A stretch of DNA of 64,000 nucleotides from Alcanivorax sp. S71-1-4. Lineage in GTDB: Bacteria > Pseudomonadota > Gammaproteobacteria > Pseudomonadales > Alcanivoracaceae. The stretch covers positions 62,001-126,000 of the forward strand of contig NZ_AQOR01000001.1 of the NCBI RefSeq assembly GCF_009846755.1, written 5' to 3'. The stretch's first letter is position 1. Each line of letters starts with the position of its first letter. The notes beneath the pieces were generated by a model. That model was given only the letters and a program-made list of their open reading frames with translations. It made no database searches and was not told the DNA's origin. The position numbers and the translations under genes were made by a program. Below, in pieces: positions 40,488 to 58,022 of this stretch.

Positions 40488-41657
40488 TCATCGTTCTACC
40501 GCCAGCGCCACCCCCTGCCCGCCACCAATACACAGCGTCGCCAGCCCCCGTTTCGCGTCACGCCGTTGCAGCGCATGCAACAACGTCACCAGCACCCGGC
40601 AACCACTGGCGCCGATGGGATGGCCCAGTGCAATGGCACCGCCGTTGACGTTCACCTTGCGACTGTCCCAGCCCAGTGCCTGCCCGACGGCCAGCGCCTG
40701 CACGGCAAAGGCTTCGTTGGCTTCAATCAGGTCCAGCTCGTCCAGTGACCAGCCCGCCATCGACAACGCGCGACGGGTGGCCGGGACCGGGCCGATGCCC
40801 ATCACGGCGGGATCAACCCCGGCACTGGCGTAGCCCGTAATGCGTGCCAGGATCGGCAGGCCCTGCTGGCGGGCGTGGTCGGCGTTCATCACCAGCACGG
40901 CGGCGGCGCCGTCGTTCAGGGCGGAGGCATTGCCGGCGGTGACGCTGCCGGTCGGGCGGAAGGCCGGGAGCAACCCGGCCAGGCTTTCAGGTGTGACGTC
41001 GTCGCGCGGCTGCTCGTCATGGTCGACGCGTTGCCCGCCTTGCCGGGTAGGCACCGTCACTGGGGTGATCTCGGCCTGAAAGGCGCCGGCCTGCCGGGCA
41101 GCGATGGCCTTGCGGTGGGAGTCGGCGGCGAAGGCATCCTGTGCGGTGCGGTCGATGCCGTAGCGCTCGGCCAGATTCTCGGCGGTGATGCCCATGTGGT
41201 AGTCGTTGAAGGCGTCCCACAGACCATCGCTGATCATGCTGTCGACGACTTCGCCATGTCCCATGCGCAGCCCGGTGCGGGCGCGTGGCAGCAGGTAGGG
41301 CGCGTTGCTCATGCCTTCCATGCCGCCGGCAATGATGGCGGTAGCGTCCCCGGCACGGATCGCCTGGGCGGCCAGTTGCACGGCCTTCAGGCCGGAGCCG
41401 CAGACCTTGTTCAGGGTGAGGGCCGGCACGTCGTGGGGCAGCCCCGCGTGGACGGCCGCCTGCCGGGCCGGGTTCTGGCCGGCACCGCCGGTGAGTACCT
41501 GCCCCATGATCACTTCATCAATTGGCACGCAGGGCATGTCTTCCAGCAGACGCCGGATCACGATAGCGCCCAACTCGGCACCACTGAGGCTGGCCAGGCC
41601 GCCCTGGAAGCGTCCGATGGGTGTGCGGGTCGCGGCGACAATCACGGCGTCATGCAT
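40488..41657 (-). CDS. Acetyl-CoA C-acetyl/acyltransferase (thiolase)
   Basis: Thiolytic cleavage of acetoacetyl-CoA to two acetyl-CoA, or a longer 3-ketoacyl-CoA. ATG 41657 (389 residues) has GGAG 8 bases upstream; a TTG 18 bases earlier would put that site inside the gene. The active Cys lies in [13 protein letters not shown] (about 87). The His of [19 protein letters not shown] (about 350) and the second Cys in CIGGGQGVA (about 378) complete the triad. It sits directly after scoAB, so acetoacetate activation and cleavage are encoded together. Confidence 0.92.
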
Positions 41658-41671
41658 GGTGTAGGCTCCGT

Positions 41672-42331
41672 TCAAGCGAAGGTCATTTCGGGGACGTGGT
41701 CAGGGATCACCAGCTTGCCTGCCGTTTTTTCGGCAATTTCCTCAACGCTGACGCCTGGCGCACGCTCCTTGAGGTGGAAGGCGCCGTCGATGATTTCCAA
41801 GTAGGCGAGATCGGTCAGCACGCGACGGATGCAGCCGGCGCCGGTCAGCGGCAGGGAGCACTCGCTCAGCAATTTCGATTGCCCGTCTTTCGAGCAATGC
41901 GTCATGGTGACGATGATGTTGTCGGCGCCGGCCACCAGATCCATGGAACCGCCCATGCCCTTGATCAGCTTGCCGGGCACCATCCACGAGGCGATGTTGC
42001 CCTGCACATCGACTTCAAACGCGCCGAGCACGGTCAGGTCGATATGCCCGCCACGGATCATGGCGAAGGATTCCGCCGAGGAAAAAATCGAGGCGCCGGG
42101 CAGCGCAGTCACCGTTTGCTTGCCAGCATTGATCATGTCGGCGTCCAGCTCGGCTTCGGTGGGGAACGGCCCCATGCCGAGCAGGCCGTTTTCCGATTGC
42201 AGCATCACCTGCATGCCCTCGGGAATGTAGTTGGCCACCAGCGTCGGGATACCGATGCCCAGGTTGACGTAGAAGCCGTCCTGCAATTCGCGCGCGACGC
42301 GGCGCGCCATCTGTTCGCGTGTCAGAGTCAT
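41672..42331 (-). CDS. scoB: 3-oxoacid CoA-transferase subunit B
   Basis: With subunit A it moves CoA from succinyl-CoA to acetoacetate. The 219 residues carry the catalytic Glu motif [15 protein letters not shown] (about 44-58) and the [29 protein letters not shown] block of SCOT-B. It is placed between scoA and the thiolase in the same direction, with a 14-base gap on each side. In this context it would activate the acetoacetate released by HMG-CoA lyase (MvaB). Confidence 0.93.
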
Positions 42332-42346
42332 GGAATTCCCCGTGGG

Positions 42347-43045
42347 TCAGGCTGACAGCGTGCGCTGCTCAATGCGTTTCTCGAACCGGCCGCACAGCAG
42401 CCGGTCCACGTAGATGCCGGGGGTGTGGATCTGGTCCGGCGGCAGCGTGCCGGGCGGGACGATCTCTTCCACCTCGACCACAGTGATGCGGCCGGCGGTG
42501 GCCACCAGCGGATTGAAATTCTGTGCCGTGTGGCGGTAGATGACGTTGCCGTACCAGTCGGCTTTCCAGCCTTTGACGATGGCAAAGTCGCCGCGGATGG
42601 CCGGCTCCAGCACATAGTGGCGGCCATCGAATTCGCGTGTCTCCTTGCCCTCGGCCACGGGCGTGCCGTAGCCGGTGGCGGTGTAGAAGGCAGGAATGCC
42701 GGCGCCGCCGGCCCGCATTTTTTCTGCCAGCGTACCCTGCGGGGTCAGCTCGACCTCCAGCTTGCCGTCGAGCATCTGCCGCTCGAACAGCGCGTTCTCG
42801 CCCACATAGGAGGCGATGATCTTGCGGACCTGGCGGTCCTCCAGCAGCACGCCGAGGCCGAAGCCGTCCACGCCGCAGTTGTTGGAAACCACGGTCAGGT
42901 CGCGGGTGCCGCGCCGGCGGATTTCCTGGATCAGGTTCTCGGGGATGCCGCACAGGCCGAAGCCGCCGGCGATCAGGGTCATGCCGTCTTGCAGGCCGTC
43001 GAGCGCCTCCTGCACGGAGGCGACGCGTTTATCGAATCCCGCCAC
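42347..43045 (-). CDS. scoA: 3-oxoacid CoA-transferase subunit A
   Basis: Alpha subunit of the acetoacetate-activating CoA-transferase, 232 residues. The oxyanion loop [17 protein letters not shown] (about 22-38) is characteristic. Also typical are [32 protein letters not shown] and the [33 protein letters not shown] stretch. It begins with GTG at 43045 preceded by AGAGG. It heads a leftward operon scoA-scoB-thiolase and is divergent from a LysR gene. Confidence 0.94.
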
Positions 43046-43117
43046 TGTTCTGCCTCTGGTTGTTATGGGTCTTCAGGCAGTGTTGCGGCGGGCGATTTAT
43101 TTGTTAAGTTTGTTTTT

Positions 43118-43133: not shown

Positions 43134-43159
43134 GAAAACCAATTAATGCCGATACTGCC

Positions 43160-44044
43160 ATGACCCTCAAACAACTCCGTGCCTTCCTCGCCGTGGCCCA
43201 GACCCTGAGTTTTGCCCAGGCCTGCGAACAACTGCATCTGTCGCAATCGGCCCTGAGCCTGACCATCAAGGCCCTGGAAGACCAGCTCGGCGGCCGGCTG
43301 TTCAGCCGCACCACGCGCAGTGTCAGCCTGACACCCGAAGGCGAGGCGCTGCTGCCACTGGCGCGCCGCCTGCTGGCGGAGTGGTCGCGCACCGAGCAGG
43401 AGTTGCGGCAGCGCTTTGCGCTGCAACAGGGGCATGTGTCGGTGGCGGCGATGCCGTCGTTTGCCGGCAACCTGTTGCCGCCGGTGTTGCGGGTGTTTCG
43501 GGAGCGTTACCCCGACATCCGCATTCGTGTACACGATGTGATCAACGAGCGCGTACTGGAAATGGTGCAGGAACGCCGGGTGGAAGTGGGTATTGCCTTT
43601 GCGCCGGCACAGGGAGGGGGCCTGCACTTCACGCCGTTGTACATCGACCGCTTTCTGGCGGTGGTGGCGGCGGATGATCCGCTGGCGATGGAGCCGGGCA
43701 CCGATTGGGCTACGCTGCTGAGGCGGCCCTTCATTGCCTTGCAGGCGCCCTCGGCGGTGCGTGCGTTGCTGGAAGCGCGTCTGGCCGCACACGGGCTGTC
43801 ATTGCCGGTGGAGATCGAGAGTCATCAACTGACCACGGTCGGGCGCATGGTCGCCTGCGGGCTCGGGGTGAGTGCGGTGCCCGCGTTATGCCGGCAGCAG
43901 ATGCACGAACTGGGGGCGCGCTGCATTGAGTTGGCGGCGCCAGTGATCGAGCAGCCGGTGGGATTGCTGACCCGCGCCGGTGACACCCTGTCGGTGGCAG
44001 CGCAGGCCTTCCACGATACCTTGCTGGAGGTGGCCGGGGCCTGA
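43160..44044 (+). CDS. LysR-family transcriptional regulator
   Basis: Likely regulator of the divergent scoAB-thiolase operon. The 294-residue protein opens with the LysR helix-turn-helix (about 1-60: LKQLRAFLAVAQTLSFAQACEQLHLSQSALSLTIKALEDQLGGRLFSRTTRSVSLTPEG), followed by a periplasmic-binding-like effector domain. I start at ATG 43160 because the family begins exactly there; the frame is open far upstream but that part overlaps scoA antisense and is not protein-like. Effector unknown; acetoacetate or a related acyl compound is plausible. Confidence 0.9.
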   Translation: MTLKQLRAFLAVAQTLSFAQACEQLHLSQSALSLTIKALEDQLGGRLFSRTTRSVSLTPEGEALLPLARRLLAEWSRTEQELRQRFALQQGHVSVAAMPSFAGNLLPPVLRVFRERYPDIRIRVHDVINERVLEMVQERRVEVGIAFAPAQGGGLHFTPLYIDRFLAVVAADDPLAMEPGTDWATLLRRPFIALQAPSAVRALLEARLAAHGLSLPVEIESHQLTTVGRMVACGLGVSAVPALCRQQMHELGARCIELAAPVIEQPVGLLTRAGDTLSVAAQAFHDTLLEVAGA

Positions 44045-45433: not shown

Positions 45434-45462
45434 TCGGAGGTTCCTGTTACCGGCGTGTGGGC

Positions 45463-45496
45463 ACTGTTCCTGCAAACTGTACCCTAATGTGTACCC
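45463..45496. promoter_or_regulatory. Direct repeats CTGTWCC between mocR and mvaB
   Basis: CTGTTCC (45464), CTGTACCC (45477) and a variant GTGTACCC (45489) are spaced 12-13 bases apart in one orientation. MocR proteins commonly bind such direct repeats. The same pattern lies upstream of mvaA (46712-46840). Confidence 0.6.
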
Positions 45497-45557
45497 ATGG
45501 CCGGCTACTGTAACGCCTGATGCGGCCTTTTGCCGAGTGTCAGACGAGATAACAACA

Positions 45558-46505
45558 ATGACCGAAACAGATGCCATGGCGGCGGCGATGATTGCGCCGG
45601 CGCCTTCCGCCCTGACGGGCGATGCCGTGCGCCTGGTGGAAGTCGGGCCACGGGACGGACTGCAGAATGAAGCCCGTTACCCGGACACCGCAACAAAAGT
45701 CGAGCTGATTACGCGGCTGGCCGCCTGCGGGCTGTCCGCCATCGAAGTCGGGGCATTCGTGTCGCCGCGCCGGGTGCCTGCCATGGCGGACACCGCGCAG
45801 GTGGTGCGCAGCCTGCCGTCGTTGTCGGATATCAGCCTGCCGGTGCTGGTGCCGAACATGACCGGGCTGGAACAGGCGCTGAGCGTGGGTTGCCGCGAGA
45901 TCGCCGTGTTTGTGTCCGCTTCGGAGGGCTTTTCGCAACGCAATATCCAGTGCAGCGTGCGTGAGAGCCTGGTGCGTTATCAAGGCGTGATCGAAGCGGC
46001 CCGCACCGCCGGGTTGCGTGTGCGCGGTTATGTCTCCTGTGTGGTGCGCTGCCCCTACGATGGCGACGTGGCGCCCTCGACGGTGGTGCCGGTGGTGCAA
46101 TGGCTGCTGGAACAGGGCTGCCATGAAGTCAGCCTCGGTGACACCATCGGCGCGGCCACACCGGCGCACATTCGTGCGCTGTTGCAGGCGTGTGCCACGA
46201 CGCTGCCCGTACAGGCCCTGGCCGGGCATTTCCACGATACCTACGGCATGGCCGTGGCCAATGTCATGGCGGCGCTGGAAGCCGGCGTGCGCGTATTCGA
46301 CACCTCGGTGGCGGGTTTGGGAGGCTGCCCGTATGCACGCGGTGCGACGGGCAATGTGGCCACGGAAAATGTGCTGTACCTGCTGCATGGCCTCGGTATG
46401 AAAACCGGTGTGGACCTGCCCCGCCTGGTACAGGTGGGGGATTTCATTTCCCGCGCCCTCGGCCGGGATAGCGCGTCCGCCGTGGGGCGTGCGCTGATGC
46501 GCTGA
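45558..46505 (+). CDS. mvaB: Hydroxymethylglutaryl-CoA lyase
   Basis: Cleaves HMG-CoA to acetoacetate and acetyl-CoA, the committed step of mevalonate or leucine breakdown. TIM-barrel features are clear: VRLVEVGPRDGLQNE near residues 24-38 (catalytic Arg and Asp), VSASEGFSQRNIQCS, HFHDTYGMAVANV (metal-binding His pair, about 228-240), and the mobile Cys loop GGCPYARGATGNVATE (about 258-273). I place the start at ATG 45558, giving 315 residues; the frame upstream overlaps the regulator's promoter. It stands alone, 430 bases ahead of mvaA. Confidence 0.95.
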   Translation: MTETDAMAAAMIAPAPSALTGDAVRLVEVGPRDGLQNEARYPDTATKVELITRLAACGLSAIEVGAFVSPRRVPAMADTAQVVRSLPSLSDISLPVLVPNMTGLEQALSVGCREIAVFVSASEGFSQRNIQCSVRESLVRYQGVIEAARTAGLRVRGYVSCVVRCPYDGDVAPSTVVPVVQWLLEQGCHEVSLGDTIGAATPAHIRALLQACATTLPVQALAGHFHDTYGMAVANVMAALEAGVRVFDTSVAGLGGCPYARGATGNVATENVLYLLHGLGMKTGVDLPRLVQVGDFISRALGRDSASAVGRALMR

Positions 46506-46935
46506 TCATCAACTGCCTGCCGGCTGTACGCCGGGTTTGGATGGAGGTGGCGGAGACGCTGCCTCTTTTTTTTGGAGAATGGCCGAGCGCTTTTCGCGTC
46601 TGACCTCGCCGGCCTCTGGCTGGCCTCCACGATGCGCGCGACGGCCAAACAACACAGATACTGTTACTGTGACATCATCTGCTTGTTACTTTCCTTCTCA
46701 CTTCCCGTTATCTGTACCAGAAACTGTTCCCTTGATCTGTTTCATCTTCAGGAGAAACCACAGAATAATAATGTATATCAGTGAGTTATCGTATTTTCCG
46801 GGAATGAAAAAGTGGCCGGGTGTTGCGCCAAACTGTACCCAATTCCTGGCCGGGGCGCGCGTAGGGTGGAGCTCGTGAACAGATCGGCGAGCGATGCCGA
46901 TGAGATGCCAACAACGCACCAGTACGGAGGGGCCA
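46506..46935. promoter_or_regulatory. mvaB-mvaA intergenic region with MocR-type repeats
   Basis: A 430-base gap without a supported gene. It holds CTGTACC (46712) and CTGTTCCC (46724) 12 bases apart, and a third ACTGTACCC at 46832. All match the repeats beside mocR. The AT-richer stretch 46740-46800 may include the promoter of the long mvaA operon; I could not fix a -35/-10 pair. Confidence 0.55.
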
Positions 46936-48228
46936 GTGGCCACAACAGATTCCCGGATTCCGAATTTTCGCGCGTTACCGCCTGCGGAGCGTCTGGCGCG
47001 GTTGTGTGAACGGGCGGGCCTGAATGACGAAGACGCGGCGCTGCTCAGCGAGCCGTCCGCGCTGCCGCTGTCGCTGGCCGACGGCATGATCGAAAACGTG
47101 GTCGGCAAATTCGAGTTGCCGATGGGTGTGGCGGCAAATTTCACGGTCAACGGGCGCGATGTGCTGGTGCCGATGGTGGTGGAAGAGCCCTCCGTGGTCG
47201 CGGCCGCCTCCTATATGGCCAAACTGGCGCGTGAGACCGGCGGTTTCCGTACCTCCAGTACCGCGCCGATGATGCGCGCGCAGGTGCAGGTGCTGGGCGT
47301 GGCTGATCCTGACAACGCCCGCCTGACGTTGCTGCGTCATCGTGACGAGATCATCGAGCTGGCCAACCGCAAGGATCAGGTGCTCAACCGCCTGGGTGGC
47401 GGTTGCCGCGACATCGAAGTACACCGGTTTGCCGACAGCGGCCGTGGCGCCATGCTGGTGCTGCACCTGCTGGTGGATGTGCGCGATGCCATGGGGGCGA
47501 ACACTGTCAACACCATGGCGGAATCGGTGGCCCCCCTGATCGAGCAGCTCACCGGTGGGCGTGTGCGCCTGCGCATCCTCTCCAATCTCGCGGATCTGCG
47601 GCTGGCGCGAGCCCAGGTGACGATCCGCGCGGCGTCGCTGTCCAGCAGCGATTACGACGGCAGCGAAGTGGTGGAGCGTATTATTGATGCCTACACGCTG
47701 GCCGCGATTGACCCGTACCGGGCGGCCACGCACAACAAGGGCATCATGAACGGTATCGACCCGGTGGTGGTGGCCACCGGCAACGATTGGCGTGCGGTGG
47801 AAGCCGGCGCCCATGTCTATGCCTGCCGGCACGGGCAGTACACTTCCCTGAGCACCTGGGAGAAAAACCGCGACGGTGATCTGGTCGGCACGCTGGAGTT
47901 GCCGCTGGCCATGGGGCTGGTGGGTGGTGCGACCAAGACGCATCCGCTGGCACGCCTGGCACTGCGCATCCTGGATGTGGGCAACGCGCAGGAACTGGCG
48001 GAAATCACCACGGCCGTCGGCCTGGCGCAAAACCTGGGTGCGCTGCGTGCGCTGGCCACCGAAGGTATCCAGCGCGGCCACATGAGCCTGCATGCCCGCA
48101 ACATTGCCCTGCTGGCCGGCGCCGAGGGCGAGGAAGTCGACTGGGTGGTGCGGGTCATGGTGCAGGAAAAAGACGTTCGAACCGATCGCGCAGAAGCGCT
48201 GTTGAAAGAAAAGCGCGCTGCAAAATAA
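46936..48228 (+). CDS. mvaA: Degradative (class II) HMG-CoA reductase
   Basis: Oxidises mevalonate plus CoA to HMG-CoA, normally with NAD. The sequence closely matches, from memory, Pseudomonas mevalonii Mva[41 protein letters not shown] (catalytic Glu), [28 protein letters not shown] (catalytic Lys region), [16 protein letters not shown] (Asp), and a C-terminal [10 protein letters not shown] with the catalytic His. I use GTG 46936 (430 residues, versus 428 in P. mevalonii) because GGAGG lies 5 bases upstream; the ATG at 46894 lacks this. It heads a nine-gene run to 58022. Confidence 0.95.
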
Positions 48229-48246: not shown

Positions 48247-49479
48247 ATGCACGATTCACAGAATACATCGCAAGCGCAACGCCCGGGGCCGCTCAGCGGC
48301 ATCGTAGTGCTGGACGTGACCCGCGTGGTGGCGGGGCCGTACTGCACCATGATGCTGGCGGACCTCGGCGCGCGGGTGATCAAGATTGAAAACCCGTCCG
48401 ACCCGGATTATGTGCGCGACTTCCCGCCGTTCGTGGACGCGGCGCAAGGCCGGCAAAGCGGCTTCTTTGCGCAATACAACCGGCACAAGGAGGGCGTCAC
48501 GCTGGACCTGAAACAGCCGGCGGCGCGCGAGGTGTTTCTGCAAATGGTGCGCAAGGCCGACGTGGTGGTGGAAAACTTCCGCCCCGGTGTCATGGCGCGC
48601 CTCGGGCTGGGGTATGACGTCCTGCGTGAGGTGAACCCGCGCCTTATCTACACCGGCATCAGCGGCTTCGGCCAGGTCGGACCCAATTCATCATTGCCGG
48701 CGTATGACAACAGCGCCCAGGCGGCCGGTGGTCTGTGGTCGATCAATGGCCCGGTGGGTGAGCCGACCCGCGTCGGCACCATCATCGGTGACCTGGCCGC
48801 ATCACTGTATGCCGTGATCGGCACACTGGCTGCGCTGCGTGAAGTAGAGCGCACCGGCGAGGGGCAGATGGTGGATGTCTCGCAACAGGATGCGGTGATG
48901 TCGCTGACGGAAAACGCGGTGGTGAACTACACCTGCAAGGGCGACATTCCTGGCCCGCTGGGCAACGATCACCCATTCGTGCGCCCCTATGGCCGTTTCC
49001 CGTGCCAGGACGGCCATGTGTTTTTCGGGGGTTACACCGACAAGTTCTGGCGCGAGGCCTGCCTGGCGTTTGGCGAGCCGGAATTGCTGGATCACCCTGA
49101 TCTGAAAACCATGGAACAGCGTTTTGACGCAGATACCTACGAGGCACATGTGCGCCCGGCGGTGGAGCGCTGGTTTGCCACCCGCACCAAGGCCGAGCTG
49201 GAAGTCATCGCCGGTGATCGTTTCCCGCTGTCCCCGATCAAGAACATCGCCGAGGTAGTGACCGATCCCCACATTCTCGCGCGCGGCATGATGACGCAGG
49301 CGCTGCTCGGTGGCGCGCAGTTTGAGGTGTTTGGTTCGCCGATCAAGCTCTCTGCCACGCCGGCGCAGGTGGCCGGCGCGGCGCCGACGCTGGGGCAACA
49401 CACGGATGCCGTGCTGCGCGACTGGCTCGGCTTGTCCGACGAGGCGCTGGACGGGCTGCGTCAGGAGGGCGTGATATGA
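48247..49479 (+). CDS. CaiB/BaiF-family (class III) CoA-transferase
   Basis: Transfers CoA between carboxylic acids through an aspartyl-CoA adduct. The 410 residues begin with GPLSGIVVLDVTRVVAGPYCTMMLADLGARVIKIE, the family signature. NFRPGVMARLGLGYDVL and SGFGQVGPNSSLPAYDNSAQAAGGL are also typical. The likely catalytic Asp is in VGTIIGDLAASLYAVIG (about residue 180). It follows mvaA by 18 bases and overlaps the crotonase gene by 4. Co-location with HMG-CoA enzymes suggests a branched C5/C6 acid such as mevalonate or anhydromevalonate as acceptor or donor (inference). Confidence 0.9.
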   Translation: MHDSQNTSQAQRPGPLSGIVVLDVTRVVAGPYCTMMLADLGARVIKIENPSDPDYVRDFPPFVDAAQGRQSGFFAQYNRHKEGVTLDLKQPAAREVFLQMVRKADVVVENFRPGVMARLGLGYDVLREVNPRLIYTGISGFGQVGPNSSLPAYDNSAQAAGGLWSINGPVGEPTRVGTIIGDLAASLYAVIGTLAALREVERTGEGQMVDVSQQDAVMSLTENAVVNYTCKGDIPGPLGNDHPFVRPYGRFPCQDGHVFFGGYTDKFWREACLAFGEPELLDHPDLKTMEQRFDADTYEAHVRPAVERWFATRTKAELEVIAGDRFPLSPIKNIAEVVTDPHILARGMMTQALLGGAQFEVFGSPIKLSATPAQVAGAAPTLGQHTDAVLRDWLGLSDEALDGLRQEGVI

Positions 49480-50249: not shown

Positions 50250-50286
50250 CGTGTCGTCGCCTGTCTGTTAATGAATGAGGATAACA

Positions 50287-51294
50287 ATGCGCAACAATAA
50301 TGTGTTTTCCCGTCTTGCCCGTGGGCAACTGCTGTCACTGACGCAGGAAAAAATCGTTTTCCTGCTGGCGGTGCTGCTGTTCGCGGTATTCAGTTTCTCG
50401 CTGACCGGCTTCGCCTCAGTCGACAACCTGCTGGGCCTGCTCTACAACGTCTCCGTACTGGGGGTGCTCGGGCTGGCCATGGCGCTGGTGGTGATTGGCC
50501 GCGGTATCGACCTGTCGCTGATTGCCACCATGGCGATCTCGGTAGCCTGGTCGCTCACACTGATCCGCGACGGGGTGAGCATCGAGGCTGCGCTGCTGTA
50601 CGGCATGCTGATGGCGCTGGGTATCGGCATCATCAACGGCTGGCTGATCGCCTACGCGGAAATTCCGGCGCTGTTCTGCACCCTGGCCATGGGCACACTG
50701 GTGTATGGCTTTGGCCGCATCGCCCTGATCCCCGTGGATGTGGTGTATATGCCTGCCGACCCAGGCTGGTTCGGCGCGCTGGGCCAGGGCGAACTGTTCG
50801 GCATTCCTGCCCCCGTCATCGTGTTCGTGTTGCTGTCTGTGGTTGCCACGCTGGTGCTGCGCTATACCCGTTTTGGCCGCTACACCTATTACATGGGGGA
50901 CAACTACCAGGCGGCACGCATCACCGGTGTGCCGACCCGCCCGATGCTGGTGATGCAATACGGCGTGACCGCGCTGATCGGTTTTGCCGCCGGCCTGGTG
51001 ACGGCCGCCTCGGTGGATTCGATGAACACCCGCATCGTCAACTCGACCATGATCTACGACGTCATCCTGGTGGTGGTGCTTGGCGGCATCGGCCTCAGCG
51101 GCGGCAAGGGCGGCGTGCGCAACGTGATTGTCGGTACGCTGCTGATCGGTATCCTGCTCAACGGCATGACGATCATGAATATCGAGTACACCGTCCAGAA
51201 TTTCATCAAGGGCGCCATCCTGCTTGCGGCGCTGATTTTCGACAGCCTGATCAACCCGCGTGATGAACAGACCGCCCAGCAGGGCGATATCTGA
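50287..51294 (+). CDS. ABC sugar-type transporter permease 1
   Basis: Inner-membrane subunit of a CUT2 (ribose/xylose-type) importer, 335 residues with about 8-10 hydrophobic segments. Typical RbsC-like stretches are LGVLGLAMALVVIGRGIDLSLIATMAISVAW (about 55-85), FGRYTYYMGDNYQAARITGVPTRPMLVMQY (ATPase-coupling loop) and YDVILVVVLGGIGLSGGKGGVRNVIVGTLLIGILLNGM. ATG 50287 has GAGG 6 bases upstream; the earlier ATG 50275 would contain that site. It follows the crotonase by 37 bases. Confidence 0.92.
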   Translation: MRNNNVFSRLARGQLLSLTQEKIVFLLAVLLFAVFSFSLTGFASVDNLLGLLYNVSVLGVLGLAMALVVIGRGIDLSLIATMAISVAWSLTLIRDGVSIEAALLYGMLMALGIGIINGWLIAYAEIPALFCTLAMGTLVYGFGRIALIPVDVVYMPADPGWFGALGQGELFGIPAPVIVFVLLSVVATLVLRYTRFGRYTYYMGDNYQAARITGVPTRPMLVMQYGVTALIGFAAGLVTAASVDSMNTRIVNSTMIYDVILVVVLGGIGLSGGKGGVRNVIVGTLLIGILLNGMTIMNIEYTVQNFIKGAILLAALIFDSLINPRDEQTAQQGDI

Positions 51295-51333: not shown

Positions 51334-52314
51334 ATGAAGAATAAAGCCCGCACACTGATTGCTTCTGCCGTAGCCGTGGCCTGCCTGTCGGGTAACGCAC
51401 TGGCCGATGACAAGCCGCTGGCCGGCAAGACCCTGGCATTTGTGCCGACCTCGCTCGGGTACGACCTCACCGACGGCTGGTACAACATGCTGAAAAAAGA
51501 ACTGGAGCCGGAAGGCCTGGAAATCATTGTGCGCGATCCGAACTGGAGCACCGCCACCGGCGCCCAGGCACTGGTGTCGCTGATTTCCCAGAAGCCGGAC
51601 ATCCTGATGGTGCAGAACCCGGACGTGCAGTCCTACGCACGCCTGCTGCGTCGCGCTGAGAACGAAGGTATCCCGGTCTTGCAGATCAATATGCGCTCCA
51701 GCGTCGAGACGACGGCGTTTGTCGGTGCGGACTGGGTTGGCATCGGCAAGGCGATGGCGGAATCCGCCGTGGCCTCCTGCGGTGACGGTAGCGGCGGTTC
51801 CGGCAAGATCAGCCTCGTGCAGGGGCCGCTGACCTCGGCCTCCAGCGTCTACCAGATGCAGGGCATCAATGAGGTACTGGAAGGCCGTGATGACATTCGC
51901 GTGGTCTCCAGCCAGGCGGCCAACTGGGACCCGTCCCAGGCGCGCGCGATCACCGACACGGTGCTCAAGCAGCATGCGGACCTGTGCGCGGTAATCGATT
52001 TCTGGGACGGCCAGGCGGTCGGTTCTGCCGCCGCCATCCGGCGCCAGCGTGGCGGAGAAGACGTGCTGCTGATTACCAATGGTGGCACCGAACAGACCGC
52101 TGCCTGCGACAATATCGCCAACGGCACCTTCGACAAATACATGACCTACAACGTGCGCGAGCAGTCCACCGATATCGCGGAGCTGGTGCGCAAGATCCTG
52201 ACCGAAGACATCCGCCCCGGCGGTGAACGGCTGGATCGCACCACGGCGGTGCGGGTCATTGATGCCGACAACCTGCGCGACGATTCCTGCTGGAAACTCA
52301 GCGATTACAAATAA
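51334..52314 (+). CDS. ABC transporter periplasmic binding protein (sugar type)
   Basis: Captures the substrate in the periplasm. Residues 1-24 are a signal peptide ending ALA/DD. The mature part has the ribose-binding-like fold: KTLAFVPTSLGYDLTDGWYNMLKKELEPEGLEIIVRDPNWS, KPDILMVQNPDVQSYARLLRRAENEGIPVLQINM and GKISLVQGPLTSASSVYQMQGINEVL. Two Cys (VASCGDGSG and ADLCAV) plus AACDN and DSCW are unusual in number for this family and could form disulfides. Ligand unknown; context suggests mevalonate, its lactone or a relative. Confidence 0.9.
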   Translation: MKNKARTLIASAVAVACLSGNALADDKPLAGKTLAFVPTSLGYDLTDGWYNMLKKELEPEGLEIIVRDPNWSTATGAQALVSLISQKPDILMVQNPDVQSYARLLRRAENEGIPVLQINMRSSVETTAFVGADWVGIGKAMAESAVASCGDGSGGSGKISLVQGPLTSASSVYQMQGINEVLEGRDDIRVVSSQAANWDPSQARAITDTVLKQHADLCAVIDFWDGQAVGSAAAIRRQRGGEDVLLITNGGTEQTAACDNIANGTFDKYMTYNVREQSTDIAELVRKILTEDIRPGGERLDRTTAVRVIDADNLRDDSCWKLSDYK

Positions 52315-52366: not shown

Positions 52367-54490
52367 ATGTCGGTGCAAGAAACATTGACCCGGTGGCGGA
52401 ACAAGTACATTCCGGACCATGTGGTGGGGGAAATCCTGTCGAAGAACTGGATCGACAACACGGTGCCGTTTCTGGCGCTGCTGGCGACGATCCTGGTGTT
52501 CGGCCAAGTGATACCGGATTTCTTTTCCCTGTCGAGCATGAGTGACACCACCCGTCAGCTCGGGGAATTCCTGTTCATCGTCATGGCCATGATGATCGTG
52601 ATGGTCGGCGGCGGGATTGATCTCAGTGTGGGCTCCAACTATGCACTGGGCAATTTTGTCGCGCTGTACCTGATGAATCTGGCCGGCCTGCCGGTGGGGG
52701 TGGCGGTGCCGCTGGTGATCCTGGCGTGCGCGGCAGTGGGCCTGCTCAACGGTATCCTGATCGGCTACCTGCGATTGCGGGCCTTCATCACCACACTGGT
52801 GACACTGATCCTGGTGCGGGCGCTGGTGGACATGCTGTTGCTGCGTTACGCCGTGGATATTTCCATGGCCATGCCGGAATCGGCGCTGTGGGAATATATC
52901 GGTATCGGCTCACCACTCGGCATCCCGTTCAGCTTCCTGCTGGCGCTGGTCCTGGTGGGGGTTGTGCATTTGTTTCTCAGCCGCACGCGGCCGGGCTGGC
53001 ACATCATGGCCATCGGTGGTTCGCGCAAATCCGCCTATAACGTCGGCATCCCCGTGCGGCGCATGGTCTGCATCAGTTACGTCATCTCCGGCGCCCTGTG
53101 TGGCGTGGCCGGTGCGCTGTTTGCCGCCCGCCTCAACAGCGCCGGCTCCGACACCGGCATCGGCCTTGAAATCATGGCGCTGACCGCGGCGGTCGTGGGC
53201 GGCAACAGCCTCGGCGGCGGACGCGGTTCCGCAGCGAAAGGGCTGATGGGTGCGGTGATTGTGTTGCTGATCACCAATGGCCTGGTGCGGTTGGGGTTTC
53301 AAAGCGGCGCGGCGCCGCTGGCACTGGGCATTATTCTGCTGGCGGCCATTGCCATCGATGTGCGCTGGCTGAAAAACCGCTACAAACTGCTGGCCAAGGT
53401 GTATGTGTCACCGGCCTATCTGGCGTTGCCGCCCTGCCCGGATACTGACCCGGGCTCCGCTTCCCCGTATGCGCAGAACGACAAGCTGCGCAATGTCGAG
53501 CTGATCGGGCTGGGTGAAGTGGAAGGGCCGGAAGATGTCATTTTCGACGCCGATGGTCATCTGTACACCGGCACCCGCTTCGGTGACATCGTGCGCTTCC
53601 GCGCACCGCATTATGACCAGCCGGAACTGTTCGCCCATACCGGCGGCCATCCGCTGGGCCTGGCGTTCGACCGCGACGGCAATCTGCTGGTGTGTGTGGC
53701 GGGCATGGGCCTGTACCGGATCACCCCGGCCGGCGACATCCAGAAGATGACCGACGAAACCAACCGCACACCCTGGTCGATCATCGACGATTCGCGCCTG
53801 AAACTGGCCGATGACCTGGACGTGGCACCGGACGGCCGCGTGTTCTTCAGTGAAGCCACCATCCGCTACGGCATGTCCAACTGGGCCTACGACGCGCTCG
53901 AAAGCCGGGGCAATGGCCGCATCATCTGCTACGACCCGGCCACGGGCCGCACCCGAACCGTGCTGCGCAACCTGATTTTCCCGAACGGCATCTGCATGGC
54001 GCACGACGGCCAGTCGTTCTTCTTTGCCGAAACCTGGGCCTGCCGCATCAGCCGCTACTGGTTCGACGGCCCGCGCGCCGGCACCGTGGAAACGGTGATC
54101 GATGATCTGCCCGGCTACCCCGACAACATCAACCGTGCCTCCGACGGCAGCTACTGGCTGGCGCTGGTGGGCATGCGCACGCCGTCGATGGACCTGGCGC
54201 TGAAAATGCCCGGCTTCCGCCGCCGCATGGCGCGCCGTATTTCGCCGCAGGAACTTATTTTCCCGAACATCAACACCGGCTGCGTGATCAAGTTCGACGA
54301 ACACGGCACGGTGCGCGACACGCTGTGGGACCTGGGCGGCGAAAACCACCCGATGATTACTTCCATGCGCGAACACAAGGGCTACCTGTATCTGGGCGGT
54401 CTGCTCAATAACCGGATTGGCAAATACCGGCTCGACGATGCCGACCCGGAATGGACCGGCATGACGAGCTATTGGGGAGGCGTGAAATGA
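52367..54490 (+). CDS. ABC permease fused to an SMP-30/strictosidine-synthase-like beta-propeller
   Basis: Single 707-residue fusion. Residues 1-338 form a complete CUT2-type permease (MVGGGIDLSVGSNYALGNFVALYL about 79-102; ATPase-facing loop GWHIMAIGGSRKSAYNVGIPVRR about 210-232; ALTAAVVGGNSLGGGRGSAAKG). After a linker (about 340-378) residues 379-707 form a six-bladed-propeller type hydrolase or lactonase domain: VEGPEDVIFDADGHLYTGTRFGD with the metal-ligand-type Glu, LIFPNGICMAHDGQSFFFAETWACRISRYWF, and DLPGYPDNINRASDGSYWLAL. RbsC-type permeases end in the cytoplasm, so the propeller would face incoming substrate there. No frameshift or stop separates the parts. Confidence 0.9.
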   Translation: MSVQETLTRWRNKYIPDHVVGEILSKNWIDNTVPFLALLATILVFGQVIPDFFSLSSMSDTTRQLGEFLFIVMAMMIVMVGGGIDLSVGSNYALGNFVALYLMNLAGLPVGVAVPLVILACAAVGLLNGILIGYLRLRAFITTLVTLILVRALVDMLLLRYAVDISMAMPESALWEYIGIGSPLGIPFSFLLALVLVGVVHLFLSRTRPGWHIMAIGGSRKSAYNVGIPVRRMVCISYVISGALCGVAGALFAARLNSAGSDTGIGLEIMALTAAVVGGNSLGGGRGSAAKGLMGAVIVLLITNGLVRLGFQSGAAPLALGIILLAAIAIDVRWLKNRYKLLAKVYVSPAYLALPPCPDTDPGSASPYAQNDKLRNVELIGLGEVEGPEDVIFDADGHLYTGTRFGDIVRFRAPHYDQPELFAHTGGHPLGLAFDRDGNLLVCVAGMGLYRITPAGDIQKMTDETNRTPWSIIDDSRLKLADDLDVAPDGRVFFSEATIRYGMSNWAYDALESRGNGRIICYDPATGRTRTVLRNLIFPNGICMAHDGQSFFFAETWACRISRYWFDGPRAGTVETVIDDLPGYPDNINRASDGSYWLALVGMRTPSMDLALKMPGFRRRMARRISPQELIFPNINTGCVIKFDEHGTVRDTLWDLGGENHPMITSMREHKGYLYLGGLLNNRIGKYRLDDADPEWTGMTSYWGGVK

Positions 54491-55587
54491 CAGCCATGAC
54501 TGCGATGCTGCGGCGCGCCACGGACCGCCTGCTCGGGCGAGGCGAGGCGGCGGTGACGTTGCCGCCGATGGATGGCGCGCTGCTGCCGAACACGGTGCTG
54601 GAACAGGCGCCGGCACTGGCGCAACTGGCGAAACCGGACAACCTGCTGCAACACGGCAACAGGGTGTTGTGCAGCAGTGGTAACCGGGTGCTGCAACTTG
54701 ATCCGGTGCAGGGCACGCTGACGCCCTGGATGCAGTTTGAAGCCGCCGTGGCGGCGATGGTGGCCCTGCCGGACCAACGGCTGGTGGTGGCCCTGGTCGA
54801 TGGCCAGTTGTTGTGTGTGGAGGGGACCACCAGCCGTGCCCTGACCGGGCTGGGGCAATACCGGGGGTTCTGCCCGACGGCACTGCTGGCCGACGGCGAC
54901 AATGCACTGATCGTGCTGGAAGGCTCGGCACAGCATCGCTGCACAGAATGGAAGCGCGACCTGATGGCCCGCGGCGCCAGTGGCAGCGTGTGGCGGCTGG
55001 ACCTGGCGCGTGGCGACAGTAGCCGCCTGGCGTCAAGGCTGGCCTGGCCGGCGGGCATCGCGCGCGGTGACGATGGCGCGCTGGTGGTGGCGGAAAGCTG
55101 GCGCCATCGCCTGATCAAATTGGCCGGCCAGAGAACAGACGTGCTGCTCTCCGACCTGCCGGGTTACCCGGGCCGCATGACGCCGACCGCCGATGGCGGG
55201 GCTTGGCTGGCGTTGTTTGCGCCACGCAGCCAACTGGTGGAATTCGTACTGCGGGAAAAAGCCTACCGCCTGCGCATGATGAGCGAGATCGATGAACGCT
55301 TCTGGGTCGCGCCCGCACTGGAGAGCGGTCGGGATTTCCGCGAGCCGCTGCAAGGGGGCGCGATCAAGTCCATGGGCATTCTCAAACCCTGGGCGCCGAC
55401 CCGCTCCTGCGGCCTGCTGGTGCGGCTGGATGAACAGTGGCAACCGCGTTTCAGCCTGCACAGCCGTGCCGACGGCCATCGCCATGGCGTCACCAGCGCA
55501 CTGGAACATGATGGCCGGTTACTGATTGCCAGCCAGGGCGGCCACTGCATTCTGGGCCTGCCGGGCGATGTGTCGGGGGATGCCTGA
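54487..55587 (+). CDS. Second SMP-30/strictosidine-synthase-like propeller protein
   Basis: The 366-residue soluble protein is related to the propeller half of the previous gene. Shared signatures include WPAGIARGDDGALVVAESWRHRLIKL and LLSDLPGYPGRMTPTADGGAWLALF. The PGYPDN of the fusion is PGYPGR here, and the N-terminal blades are shorter, so activity may differ or be lost. It starts at ATG 54487, overlapping the previous stop by 2 bases, and its own stop overlaps the next ATG by one base. No signal peptide is present, so it is cytoplasmic. Possibly a partner or divergent copy of the fused lactonase domain. Confidence 0.8.
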   Translation: MTAMTAMLRRATDRLLGRGEAAVTLPPMDGALLPNTVLEQAPALAQLAKPDNLLQHGNRVLCSSGNRVLQLDPVQGTLTPWMQFEAAVAAMVALPDQRLVVALVDGQLLCVEGTTSRALTGLGQYRGFCPTALLADGDNALIVLEGSAQHRCTEWKRDLMARGASGSVWRLDLARGDSSRLASRLAWPAGIARGDDGALVVAESWRHRLIKLAGQRTDVLLSDLPGYPGRMTPTADGGAWLALFAPRSQLVEFVLREKAYRLRMMSEIDERFWVAPALESGRDFREPLQGGAIKSMGILKPWAPTRSCGLLVRLDEQWQPRFSLHSRADGHRHGVTSALEHDGRLLIASQGGHCILGLPGDVSGDA

Positions 55588-57086
55588 TGAAACCGTTGAT
55601 CGAACTGCGCAACATCACCAAAGAATATCGCGGCGTGCCCGCGATCAAGGATGTCAGCCTGAGTATCTACCCGGGCGAAACGCTGTCGCTATTGGGTGAA
55701 AACGGTGCCGGCAAATCCACCCTGACGAAAATGATGGCCGGGGCGGTCGTGCCCTCCGCCGGCAGCCTGCTGATCGACGGCAAGCCGATGCGTTTTGAAA
55801 CCCCGAATGAGGCACTGCGCCACGGCTTCGCCATGGTGTTTCAGGAAACCAGCCTGGTGCCGTCGCTGACGGTAGCGCAAAACCTGTATCTGGGGCGTGA
55901 GCCATTCTTCAACCGGCTGCGCGGGCTGTACATTTCGGCGCAGCAGTTTTTGCAGACGCTGAACTTCAACGTCGAGCCGACCAAGCTGGTGTCGCAACTG
56001 GGCGCTGCCGAACGGCAGATGGTGGAAATCGCACGCGCGTTGCAGCACAAGGCGCGGCTGATTATTTTCGACGAACCGACCGCCACCCTGACGCCGGAAG
56101 AAAAGCACCACTTCTTCGGCCTGGTGGAACGCCTCAAAAAGCAGGGCGTGGCGATTGTGTTCATTTCCCATGCGCTGGAAGAAGCGCTGGCCATTTCGGA
56201 TCGTATCACCGTGCTGCGTGACGGCGAACATGTGCTGACCGCGCCGGCGGCGGAGCTGACCCAGGATGCCGTTATCAAGGCGATGGTGGGCCGCGATCTC
56301 TCCGGTGAGTTGTACAGTGGTATCGGTGCGCATCGCACGCCGCGGCCTGCCGGGCGCAAAGTGCTGAGTATCCAGAACCTGTCGATGGGCAGCATGGTGA
56401 AGAATACCGCGTTCTCGTTGTACGAGGGGCAGGTCACCGGCATGTTCGGGCTGGTCGGTTCCGGGCGCACGGAAACCGCAAAAGTCATTGCCGGTGTGGT
56501 GAAGCGTGATTTCCTGCACGGTGGTGAAGTGTTCCTCGACGGCAAGCCGGTGCGCTACCGCACGCCGCGCCCCGCCGTGGGTGACGGCATCATGTATGTG
56601 ACGGAAGACCGCAAGCTGGAAGGCTTTTTCGAAACCTTGTCGATCTCGGAAAATATCTTTGCCGGCAAGCTGGCCTCTGCCGAGCCGGTGCCGAAGGTGA
56701 TTACCTACCGTGAAGTGGCCACGGTGGCCGAGCATTGGCGCAAGTCGCTGAACGTGCGCGCCATCAGCGGCGATGCACGGGTGATTGAGTTGTCCGGTGG
56801 TAACCAGCAGAAAGTGGTGATCGCCAAATCACTGGTGCAAAAGCCGCGCGTGATCATTTTTGATGAGCCGACTCGCGGCGTGGATGTTGGCGCCATTGCC
56901 GAGATTCATCAACTGATCAACCAACTGGCCGATGACGGCCTGGTGGTCTGGGTCATTTCCTCCAACCTGCCGGAAATCCTGTCGCTGTCGGACCGCATCC
57001 TGGTCACGCGCCAGGGCCGTGTGGTGGAAGAGTTCCGCCCCGACCAGGCCACGGAAGAAAAGATCATGTACGCCGCCGTGCATTAA
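55587..57086 (+). CDS. ABC sugar-type transporter ATPase (two nucleotide-binding domains)
   Basis: Energy-coupling subunit of the CUT2 importer, 499 residues with two tandem ABC domains, as in RbsA, XylG and MglA. The first has Walker A GENGAGKST at about 38-46 and Walker B LIIFDEPTATL. The second has a modified P-loop, GLVGSGRTETAK (about 290-301), the signature LSGGNQQKVVIAKSL and Walker B VIIFDEPTRGVDVG. The degenerate second Walker A is normal for this class. With two permeases and one binding protein it completes the transporter. Confidence 0.94.
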   Translation: MKPLIELRNITKEYRGVPAIKDVSLSIYPGETLSLLGENGAGKSTLTKMMAGAVVPSAGSLLIDGKPMRFETPNEALRHGFAMVFQETSLVPSLTVAQNLYLGREPFFNRLRGLYISAQQFLQTLNFNVEPTKLVSQLGAAERQMVEIARALQHKARLIIFDEPTATLTPEEKHHFFGLVERLKKQGVAIVFISHALEEALAISDRITVLRDGEHVLTAPAAELTQDAVIKAMVGRDLSGELYSGIGAHRTPRPAGRKVLSIQNLSMGSMVKNTAFSLYEGQVTGMFGLVGSGRTETAKVIAGVVKRDFLHGGEVFLDGKPVRYRTPRPAVGDGIMYVTEDRKLEGFFETLSISENIFAGKLASAEPVPKVITYREVATVAEHWRKSLNVRAISGDARVIELSGGNQQKVVIAKSLVQKPRVIIFDEPTRGVDVGAIAEIHQLINQLADDGLVVWVISSNLPEILSLSDRILVTRQGRVVEEFRPDQATEEKIMYAAVH

Positions 57087-57120
57087 GCGCCGCCCGGCGC
57101 CATTCCCGCTGACAGACAGC

Positions 57121-57142
57121 GCGGATCGGGTCACCGATCCGC
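57121..57142. other. Intercistronic hairpin before the outer-membrane channel gene
   Basis: GCGGATCGG pairs perfectly with CCGATCCGC around the loop GTCA. There is no T run, so it may stabilise or attenuate the upstream message rather than end it. It is 80 bases before the 57222 start. Confidence 0.6.
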
Positions 57143-57221
57143 CACGGGATGGCTTTGCCTGGCGTCTGGTAACTGCAACCTGGTTCCAACACTGTTCTCT
57201 AACAAAAAAAGGACCTGCATC

Positions 57222-58022
57222 ATGAAAACGACAACACACACTCTCGTCCGGACCTTGCGCCATGTCGCCGGCCTGTCTCTGTTGGCCTGTCTTGGCTGCG
57301 TGAGTCTGGCCCAGGCGGAAACCTTTTCGATCACCAACGTGCAGTTGTTTACCACCAACAACGCCGAGGCGGATGTCTTCAACGGCTACGGTACGGCAGA
57401 TGAAGACCTGACGGTGTTCCGCGCGGAGCATTTCGGCGGTTGGGAATACGGCGACAATTATATCAATCTGGACCTGTTCCACGGCGCAGACGTGGGCGGC
57501 AATGGTTCCGGATCGTTTGGTGCAGACACCAAACAGCATACTTTCTTTGTCTACCAGCCGCGCCTGTTCCTGCCGGGCTTGAAGAATATCGCCGATGGTG
57601 AGGCATTCGTGCGCAATGTGTACTTCTCATACCGGCGCGAGCAGGCCAGCTACGGTAATTTCTATTCGGACAACGCCGGTATCTCCCTGGACCTGGCCAT
57701 CCCCGGTACGCAGTTCTTCGAGATCGATTTCCTGGCCCGCAAGACCAATGTCGATGACGGCACCAAATGGCTGACCCGCGTGGTCTGGCTGGCGCCGTTC
57801 GACATTGGCCGCCTGGGCGCGCATTTCGATGGGCTGGTGCTGGTGAAATCCACTGATGATTTCGGCACCAATATCCTGGCGCAGACCGACCTGTTGTTCG
57901 ATGTGCTGAACAAGGGGCAGTTGCAGGCAGGCATTCGCCTGGAGCACGCGCGCTATGACGATCCGGCGGGCGGTGACTATTCGCGTACGTCGCCGTACCT
58001 GATGGCGAAGCTGTTCTTCTGA
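57222..58022 (+). CDS. Tsx-like outer-membrane channel
   Basis: Probable outer-membrane pore, 266 residues. An extended signal peptide ends SLAQAE (about 33). The mature chain is built of amphipathic strands (FSITNVQLFTTNNA; YGDNYINLDLFHGAD; LFDVLNKGQLQAGIRLEHARY) and ends in Phe (YLMAKLFF), the usual barrel-assembly signal. The WEYGDNYINLDLFHG pattern resembles the Tsx/OmpK nucleoside-channel family. As the last gene of the mevalonate run, after the ABC importer, it is a likely outer-membrane entry port for the same substrate. Confidence 0.75.
   Translation: MKTTTHTLVRTLRHVAGLSLLACLGCVSLAQAETFSITNVQLFTTNNAEADVFNGYGTADEDLTVFRAEHFGGWEYGDNYINLDLFHGADVGGNGSGSFGADTKQHTFFVYQPRLFLPGLKNIADGEAFVRNVYFSYRREQASYGNFYSDNAGISLDLAIPGTQFFEIDFLARKTNVDDGTKWLTRVVWLAPFDIGRLGAHFDGLVLVKSTDDFGTNILAQTDLLFDVLNKGQLQAGIRLEHARYDDPAGGDYSRTSPYLMAKLFF

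What the first reader, a model, noticed from the sequence alone, without database searches (positions are those of the whole stretch)
40488..58022. Self-contained mevalonate (or mevalonolactone) degradation and uptake island
Seen: class II HMG-CoA reductase, HMG-CoA lyase, scoAB and thiolase form a full path from mevalonate to acetyl-CoA. In the same block are a CaiB-type transferase, a crotonase, a complete CUT2 ABC importer, two propeller hydrolases, a Tsx-like channel and two regulators. Known: P. mevalonii uses MvaA and MvaB to grow on mevalonate. Inferred: the block is a transport-plus-catabolism system for mevalonate or its lactone. It sits inside a gene order (coaD ... tetR / hydrolase-rsmD-M16-ftsY) otherwise conserved with Pseudomonas, suggesting acquisition.
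Basis: partly seen in the sequence, partly recalled or inferred. Interest (0 to 1): 0.85.

Follow-up and report, generated by a model that had tools for sequence, protein, structure and literature searches.

The report
Bacterial island eating mevalonate-type lactones
A movable block of bacterial genes appears to import a small isoprenoid building block (mevalonate, probably as its lactone and probably also its dehydrated form) and burn it to acetyl-CoA, with a transporter carrying its own lactone-opening enzyme and a two-enzyme side branch not described in the papers searched.

Summary
In detail: 40488-58022 encodes a degradative class II HMG-CoA reductase, HMG-CoA lyase, ScoAB, thiolase, a CaiB-type CoA-transferase, a crotonase, a five-gene CUT2/propeller cassette and two regulators; 'Tsx-like' stayed unproven. 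Three of seven genus genomes have HMGR here; four have an empty site. The transporter family is not mevalonate-specific: 2 of 37 cassettes sampled outside the genus lie beside HMGR. But it joined HMGR in three separate lineages, its permease is fused to a Ca-lactonase-type propeller, and other HMGR loci carry a Drp35-type propeller (known mevalonolactonase). New here: CaiB plus a hydratase is a module tied to HMGR. All 22 CaiB-bearing HMGR loci have either the crotonase (10) or a non-homologous MaoC-type pair (12); searched by CaiB, it was seen only beside HMGR (5 of 5 genome hits, the window included; 2 of 2 plasmid hits). Mevalonate needs neither enzyme; anhydromevalonate, an acyl unit of fungal siderophores, would. 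Best reading: a MocR-controlled (CTGTACC operator) mevalonolactone/anhydromevalonate pathway. Substrates are inferred, not shown.

The parts
40488..41657 (-). thiolase (acetyl-CoA C-acetyltransferase): acetoacetyl-CoA to 2 acetyl-CoA
   Evidence: TIGR01930 472.1 bits over cut-off; 94% identical in congener G752
41672..42331 (-). scoB, 3-oxoacid CoA-transferase subunit B
   Evidence: TIGR02428 330.5 bits over cut-off
42347..43045 (-). scoA, 3-oxoacid CoA-transferase subunit A
   Evidence: TIGR02429 254.7 bits over cut-off
43160..44044 (+). LysR-type regulator, divergent from scoA
   Evidence: PF00126, PF03466
44045..45433 (-). MocR-type (GntR-aminotransferase) regulator, the regulator that travels with degradative HMGR
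   Evidence: PF00392, PF00155; a homologue at over 33% identity in 54 of 66 HMGR locus rows
45477..45483 (+). predicted MocR operator CTGTACC between mocR and the HMG-CoA lyase gene
45558..46505 (+). HMG-CoA lyase (MvaB type)
   Evidence: NF004283 411.5 bits, cut-off 246
46712..46718 (+). predicted MocR operator CTGTACC upstream of HMGR
46833..46839 (+). predicted MocR operator CTGTACC upstream of HMGR
   Evidence: lies in a stretch identical in congener G748
46894..48228 (+). class II, degradative HMG-CoA reductase (MvaA type)
   Evidence: TIGR00532 428.4 bits; PDB 1qax E 5.8e-201; only HMGR in the genome
48247..49479 (+). CaiB/BaiF family III CoA-transferase of an HMGR-tied clade
   Evidence: PF02515 414.2 bits; clade separate from 6 other places in the genome; beside HMGR in 7 of 7 hits, the window itself being one
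49476..50249 (+). crotonase (enoyl-CoA hydratase) of an HMGR-tied clade
   Evidence: PF00378; one clade with nine others 98/98, both catalytic-type Glu present in 10 of 10
50275..51294 (+). CUT2 permease 1 (cassette gene 1)
   Evidence: PF02653; 40 cassettes
51334..52314 (+). periplasmic binding protein (cassette gene 2)
   Evidence: PF13407 138 bits; best PDB match E 4.7e-13
52367..54490 (+). CUT2 permease 2 fused to a six-bladed lactonase-type propeller (cassette gene 3)
54451..55587 (+). second propeller, degenerate at the lactonase-type positions (cassette gene 4)
   Evidence: aligned with the fused propeller; D586 kept in 0 of 38, N540 in 4 of 38
55587..57086 (+). CUT2 ATPase with two ABC domains (cassette gene 5)
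   Evidence: PF00005, two stretches
57222..58022 (+). putative outer-membrane protein with signal peptide-like start (by eye); 'Tsx-like' unproven
   Evidence: no Pfam or NCBIfam match, no significant PDB match; 74% identical in G748; model pLDDT 43

Best explanation
A MocR-controlled catabolic island for mevalonate-type C6 compounds. The compound arrives as a neutral lactone (mevalonolactone; probably also anhydromevalonolactone), is bound by the CUT2 binding protein and passes through two permeases. The propeller fused to the second permease lies, by inference, on the inner face and opens the lactone as it enters; the second propeller is a degenerate partner. Mevalonate plus CoA and NAD is oxidised by HMGR to HMG-CoA, which the lyase splits into acetyl-CoA and acetoacetate; ScoAB and thiolase turn acetoacetate into acetyl-CoA. 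The CaiB transferase and the crotonase form a side entry for the dehydrated compound: CaiB loads CoA on anhydromevalonate, the crotonase hydrates it to mevalonyl-CoA, and CaiB hands the CoA on to the next anhydromevalonate, releasing mevalonate for HMGR, as CaiB/CaiD do for crotonobetaine and carnitine (recalled). Shown by sequence: gene content, module linkage, propeller fold (predicted), residues, operator word. Inferred: every substrate, the side of the fused propeller, the CoA relay. My own odds: mevalonate catabolism about 0.9, lactone import about 0.6, anhydromevalonate branch about 0.45.
For: Full enzyme set over curated cut-offs; no HMG-CoA synthase over cut-off. Module linkage: of 19 distinct CaiB-bearing HMGR loci, 7 have this crotonase and 12 a MaoC-type pair; none matches both query types, none lacks both; with L248-L250 it is 10 and 12 of 22. 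Search by CaiB, not by HMGR: 5 of 398 genomes hit (the window is one) and 5 of 5 have HMGR beside it; 2 of 72,556 plasmid records hit and both have HMGR and the crotonase within 7 kb. The CaiB copies form one clade apart from the genome's other copies, the crotonases likewise. CaiB presence changes 7 times on the HMGR tree (5 forced by starred branches), each time with a hydratase. Lactone: Drp35-type propellers beside HMGR in L042, L058, L063 and L203, and Drp35 hydrolyses mevalonolactone at 478 umol/min/mg (PMC6052127, passages); the fused propeller has that fold in the model and the four residues in 40 of 40. Cassette beside HMGR in three separate lineages. Operator CTGTACC in 47 of 54 mocR-bearing rows and 0 of 12 without.
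Against: The cassette family is mostly elsewhere (2 of 37 in the samples beside HMGR). No binding-protein, permease or fusion columns are shared by the HMGR-linked cassettes beyond what other triples of sister pairs show (72 of 364 triples reach it for the binding protein). Two of the six HMGR-linked cassettes (L062, L141) have no CaiB or crotonase in the stretch. The crotonase has no special kinship to fungal SidH (7oeq, 124.7 bits, listed 40th). CaiB's second-best PDB relative is human succinate-hydroxymethylglutarate CoA-transferase, and the MaoC partner is closest to itaconyl-CoA hydratase, which would also suit a dicarboxylate such as 3-methylglutaconate. L248 also has an annotated MaoC-family dehydratase of 112 codons beyond the crotonase, on the other strand; it does not match my MaoC queries at E<=1e-8. 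I found no growth, binding or enzyme data for the CaiB, hydratase or cassette proteins in the searches made.
Confidence: 0.5

Rival explanations
1. The island uses mevalonate or mevalonolactone only. CaiB and the hydratase salvage the wrong enantiomer: (S)-mevalonate is loaded with CoA, dehydrated to anhydromevalonyl-CoA and rehydrated on the other face, giving (R)-mevalonate for HMGR.
For: Explains why CaiB plus a hydratase is tied to HMGR and why many HMGR loci do without it; uses the same two enzymes and intermediates.
Against: Nature makes (R)-mevalonate (recalled), so a conserved epimerising branch has no obvious natural feedstock; the hydratase would have to be stereochemically unselective, yet two unrelated hydratases are used.
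Confidence: 0.2
2. The CaiB/hydratase pair handles a C6 dicarboxylate: CaiB activates 3-methylglutaconate (or HMG), the hydratase makes HMG-CoA, and the lyase finishes; HMGR merely shares the product.
For: CaiB resembles SUGCT (9br7, 219.4 bits) and succinyl-CoA:mesaconate CoA-transferase (316.8 bits, under its cut-off of 700); the MaoC partner resembles itaconyl-CoA hydratase; TRAP and TctA-type carriers beside other HMGR genes suit di- and tricarboxylates. PMC5789663 (one passage) reports an HMG-CoA lyase plus CaiB operon in beta-rhizobia; I did not compare its CaiB.
Against: Such a route needs no HMGR, yet this CaiB clade was found beside HMGR in 5 of 5 genome hits (window included) and 2 of 2 plasmid hits when searched by CaiB itself; HMG-CoA lyase, which it would need, has no match in the stretch in L060, L061 and L087 while HMGR is there.
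Confidence: 0.2
3. The CUT2/propeller cassette imports something unrelated (a sugar or another lactone) and only happens to sit in the mevalonate operon.
For: Most cassettes lie beside other acyl-CoA or sugar genes; no shared specificity columns.
Against: Three separate lineages of the cassette are beside HMGR, in five of the six loci downstream of it in the same direction (L066 is the exception); elsewhere TctA or TRAP carriers take this place.
Confidence: 0.1

Closest known systems
Pseudomonas mevalonii mvaAB mevalonate catabolism
   Same: Class II NAD-type HMGR (E 5.8e-201 to PDB 1qax) and HMG-CoA lyase
   Different: Adds ScoAB, thiolase, an ABC importer with a lactonase-type fusion, CaiB plus crotonase, and a MocR regulator with a predicted operator (what the P. 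mevalonii locus itself holds beyond mvaAB was not looked at)
E. coli CaiB/CaiD carnitine system (recalled mechanism)
   Same: Family III CoA-transferase plus crotonase, which could relay CoA between a 2-enoate and its 3-hydroxy acid
   Different: CaiB here is under the L-carnitine CoA-transferase cut-off (152.9 vs 413 bits) and its product would feed HMGR
Staphylococcus aureus Drp35 mevalonolactonase (PMC6052127)
Fungal SidI/SidH branch of fusarinine-type siderophore synthesis (start of the abstract of PMC3709128 seen in a listing)
   Same: Would use the same intermediates, mevalonyl-CoA and anhydromevalonyl-CoA, in the opposite direction
   Different: CoA-transferase instead of a ligase; crotonase not specially close to SidH
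CUT2 sugar importers (ribose, arabinose, allose)
   Same: Domain make-up of permeases, binding protein and double ATPase
   Different: The named sugar equivalogs shown are all under their cut-offs; permease-propeller fusion and a second, degenerate propeller in the cassette

Membership tests
Mevalonate catabolic pathway (P. mevalonii type) | degradative class II HMG-CoA reductase | tested here: met
   TIGR00532 428.4 bits over 259.95
Mevalonate catabolic pathway (P. mevalonii type) | HMG-CoA lyase in the same locus | tested here: met
   NF004283 411.5 over 246
Mevalonate catabolic pathway (P. mevalonii type) | HMGR not serving biosynthesis (no HMG-CoA synthase) | tested here: met
   no match over the TIGR01835 cut-off; best 29.9 bits vs 360.35
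Mevalonate catabolic pathway (P. mevalonii type) | growth on mevalonate | not testable with these tools
   no strain
CUT2 ABC importer | BPD_transp_2 permeases, Peripla_BP_4 protein, double ABC ATPase | tested here: met
A named sugar importer (ribose, arabinose, allose, xylose, AI-2, galactofuranose) | curated equivalog cut-off | tested here: not met
   all those shown are under cut-off; for the ATPase the best 25 of 188 families were shown
SMP-30/Drp35/PON-type Ca lactonases (fused propeller) | six-bladed propeller fold | tested here: met
SMP-30/Drp35/PON-type Ca lactonases (fused propeller) | Glu, Asp, Asn, Asp metal/catalytic set (roles recalled) | tested here: met
   E389, D483, N540, D586 in 40 of 40; matched to Drp35 by motif, by eye
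SMP-30/Drp35/PON-type Ca lactonases (fused propeller) | lactonase activity | not testable with these tools
   no enzyme data
SMP-30/Drp35/PON-type Ca lactonases (second propeller) | same residue set | tested here: not met
   D586 kept in 0 of 38, D483 in 0 of 38, N540 in 4 of 38, E389 in 3 of 38
Carnitine CaiB/CaiD system | CaiB over the L-carnitine CoA-transferase cut-off | tested here: not met
   152.9 bits vs 413
SidH-type mevalonyl-CoA hydratase | closest solved relative is SidH | tested here: inconclusive
   7oeq matches at E 5.6e-35 but is listed 40th of the 60 shown of 85
Tsx-type channel | match to a Tsx family model or structure | tested here: inconclusive
   no Pfam/NCBIfam match, no significant PDB match; model unusable

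The most novel reading that the evidence does not exclude
Bacteria have a dedicated pathway for anhydromevalonate, the acyl unit of coprogen/fusarinine-type fungal siderophores: a CaiB transferase and one of two unrelated hydratases relay CoA to make mevalonate, which degradative HMGR then burns. In the window it is fed by a new importer type whose permease carries a lactone-opening propeller.
Probability: 0.42. Interest if true: 0.78.

Novelty: new variant of a known kind. Interest (0 to 1): 0.6.

Why it matters
If right, degradative HMGR operons serve not only free mevalonate but a wider set of fungal, plant and algal isoprenoid-derived acids and lactones, including a piece of fungal siderophores, by a route that needs no ATP for activation. 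It gives a use to a CaiB/hydratase pair that annotation leaves generic, predicts a regulon (MocR with CTGTACC) in many Pseudomonadota, and points to a family of ABC importers with a permease-lactonase fusion, whose other members sit beside many other acyl-CoA pathways.

Tried and rejected
One clade for the HMGR-linked cassettes: rejected (p-AU 4.6e-95; 0 of 200 bootstrap trees). Shared specificity columns in HMGR-linked binding proteins, first permeases and fusions: no more than other triples of sister pairs give (72, 147 and 48 of 364 triples reach the observed number). Special kinship of the crotonase to SidH: none seen. Structure of the 57222 product: two-row alignment, mean pLDDT 43, unusable. 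GC content as a sign of acquisition: weak; the cassette is 62.5% against 62.5% for the whole window, so acquisition rests on the empty sites. Printed precedent for a mevalonate MocR regulon: the words mevalonate, HMG and CTGTACC do not occur in the main text of PMC5320631 (passage searches). Printed precedent for bacterial anhydromevalonate use: none seen among titles and abstract starts listed (20 of 36 papers; 20 of 1,280; 2 of 2; 10 of 11); these lists are capped and the papers were not read. Mevalonate catabolism: searches (3 papers; 2; 2) gave no account of these gene sets in the listings; passages of PMC13064465 and PMC13370337 seen gave none either; PMC5789663 (one passage) reports an HMG-CoA lyase plus CaiB operon in beta-rhizobia, not compared by me. 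A permease-propeller fusion in print: one search found 0 papers holding its three terms together. In one search two of my query proteins (caiB_L192, TRAPm_L192) came out in a wrong frame and their columns were not used. VIA-align rows cover residues 365-707 only; the permease half was not compared by fold.
Full report
What is there. The window lies in a 4.18-Mb genome (77 contigs) whose only HMGR gene is the one found here. The HMGR is a degradative class II enzyme by curated cut-off and no HMG-CoA synthase passes its cut-off, so the direction is very likely catabolic.

Acquisition. In the genus (7 genomes held) three have HMGR over the cut-off: the window, G748 and G752. In G747, G749, G750 and G751 the flanking aldehyde dehydrogenase-tetR and hydrolase-rsmD-M16 genes are there with 19 to about 870 bases between tetR and the hydrolase, and no match to any island gene in the fetched 19.9-kb stretches (E<=1e-10, half the query or more). 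G748 has the same version as the window (60-93% identity from mocR to the ATPase, 73% for the last gene); its stretch shows no thiolase and its genome gave no match to the hydrolase at E<=1e-80. G752 has thiolase, scoAB and LysR at 83-94% identity, then a different version: mocR (58%), HMGR (71%), lyase (58%), CaiB (59%), a TRAP transporter and two MaoC-type genes, no crotonase and no CUT2 cassette. One slot thus holds nothing, version A or version B. In 46 genomes of the family the cassette is in two, the window and G748.

The transporter alone does not prove mevalonate. Using the fused propeller as query I found cassettes on 16 plasmid records (15 whole, one split across the record's start; three further, weaker records of the 19 hits, 36-37% identical, were not taken), at 16 places in a sample of 398 Pseudomonadota genomes besides the window's own, and at 5 new places in 289 genomes of the class of G412. 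HMGR lies beside 1 of 16, 1 of 16 and 0 of 5: 2 of 37. The family search adds G748, which is beside HMGR; L062 and L066 came from the search by HMGR and do not belong to this count. Twelve weaker places (37-42% identity, open frames of 354-520 residues, too short for the fusion) were not counted. The other cassettes with annotation sit beside CaiB, MaoC, CoA ester lyases, acyl-CoA dehydrogenases, SDRs, aldehyde dehydrogenases or sugar genes (three plasmid stretches had no annotation). But the six HMGR-linked cassettes (window, L202, L066, L152, L062, L141) are three pairs in different parts of the tree, so the same importer type joined HMGR in at least three lineages, or was parted from it several times.

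Lactone. The survey of 98 HMGR locus rows is the window, the 80 best of a capped list of 591, L141, L152, 11 family genomes, and 4 of the 26 other over-cut-off genomes. In it the neighbour that imports is exchangeable: a TctA-type carrier, several TRAP types or the CUT2 cassette. In L042, L058 and L063 (TctA type) and L203 (TRAP) a propeller is added. That of L042 matches Drp35 (312 bits, E 4.5e-92); the other three are 53-57% identical to it. Its start looks like a signal peptide, by eye, in the two that I looked at (L042, L063). Drp35 hydrolyses mevalonolactone at 478 umol/min/mg, at least 100 times faster than the other lactones tried (PMC6052127, passages). So some HMGR operons hold a lactonase-type propeller, apparently secreted beside an anion-type carrier and fused to the permease beside CUT2. 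This supports a lactone as natural substrate; it is an inference.

The CaiB/hydratase module. Mevalonate catabolism needs neither enzyme. Yet of the 98 rows, 20 (19 distinct) hold a CaiB at 58% identity or more; 7 of the 19 have the crotonase (61% or more, the window's own included), 12 have two MaoC-type genes instead, none matches both, none lacks both, and no row without CaiB has either at these levels (L036, L045 and L206 have a 29-39% crotonase, not counted). MaoC1 is a FAS1_DH_region protein and MaoC2 matches itaconyl-CoA hydratase (E 1.1e-10). Ten of the 12 are from the window's own bacterial family, so they are not independent. In a tree of 37 rows (30 different, seven being second fetches of the same genes) the HMGR-linked CaiBs form one clade (99, quick tree) apart from the genome's six other places and from cassette-linked ones, with the MaoC-linked ones nested as one branch (100); the tool warns of long branches among the outgroups, and L248-L250 are not in it. 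The ten crotonases, those of L248-L250 included, form one clade (98/98) and keep both Glu of the hydratase motifs. On the HMGR tree (63 rows) CaiB presence changes 7 times (5 forced).

To see whether the module is tied to HMGR or only to the lyase I searched by CaiB itself. In 398 genomes, 5 hit at E<=1e-110 (the window, G412, G544, G615, G638) and all five have HMGR beside it, 4 of 4 without the window. On 72,556 plasmid records, 2 hit at E<=1e-90 (Rhodococcus pseudokoreensis, Rhizobium sp. CC-CFT758); both carry HMGR and this crotonase within 7 kb, and these two are also the only plasmid hits of the crotonase at E<=1e-60. With L248, L249 and L250, 22 distinct loci have CaiB: 10 with the crotonase, 12 with the MaoC pair. 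In L248 a short annotated MaoC-family dehydratase lies beyond the crotonase on the other strand; it does not match my MaoC queries. The numbers are small, but a branch that must end in mevalonate fits: anhydromevalonate is activated, hydrated and released as mevalonate by CoA relay. 3-Methylglutaconate would need no HMGR. Anhydromevalonate is the acyl unit of coprogen and fusarinine-type siderophores, and SidI and SidH make its CoA ester from mevalonate in fungi (names from the abstract start of PMC3709128; siderophore chemistry recalled). Nothing here shows which compound is used in nature.

Regulation. A MocR gene travels with HMGR (54 of 66 rows at over 33% identity). A word seen in four upstream regions (window, L202, L201, L152), CTGTACC, lies within 400 bases upstream of HMGR in 47 of 54 rows with mocR (43 of 50 without the four) and 0 of 12 without mocR, where locus density predicts about 0.06 per stretch; it is missing in L051, L058, L063, L064, L066, L203 and L204. 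Thirteen of the 66 rows are from the window's own family, two of them one record. In the window the word is at 45477, 46712 and 46833. Paired direct and inverted copies fit what is reported for MocR operators (PMC5320631, passages).

Verdict. The catabolic core is a new member of a known kind. The importer fusion and the CaiB/hydratase branch make the whole a new variant, with a testable claim for a route for anhydromevalonate that I did not find in print.

Noticed in passing
window 39339-40457 (+): SoFic-type protein adenylyltransferase (NF046030, 647.2 bits over cut-off 550) between tetR and the thiolase; no match in the stretches fetched for the same slot in six congeners.
   Followed up: partly
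L263 (window genome, contig 67, 72000-91900): A separate cluster that looks, by eye, like a Rieske-type oxygenase, crotonases, an HMG-CoA-synthase-like protein (29.9 bits, under cut-off), a thiolase-like protein and two CaiBs.
   Followed up: partly
L248, 10707-16982: Rhodococcus pseudokoreensis plasmid: an annotated hydantoinase/oxoprolinase A/B pair directly in front of the HMGR-tied CaiB and crotonase, opposite HMGR and lyase.
   Followed up: no
L066: Roseovarius MAG has both a TRAP transporter and the CUT2/propeller cassette beside HMGR.
   Followed up: no
L249, about 10785-11992: The CaiB beside HMGR in Rhizobium sp. CC-CFT758 lies in two frames and has no listed gene.
   Followed up: no
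L142-L151, L153-L171, L213-L217: A family of five-gene CUT2 cassettes with a permease-propeller fusion and a second, degenerate propeller, beside many different acyl-CoA or sugar pathways.
   Followed up: partly
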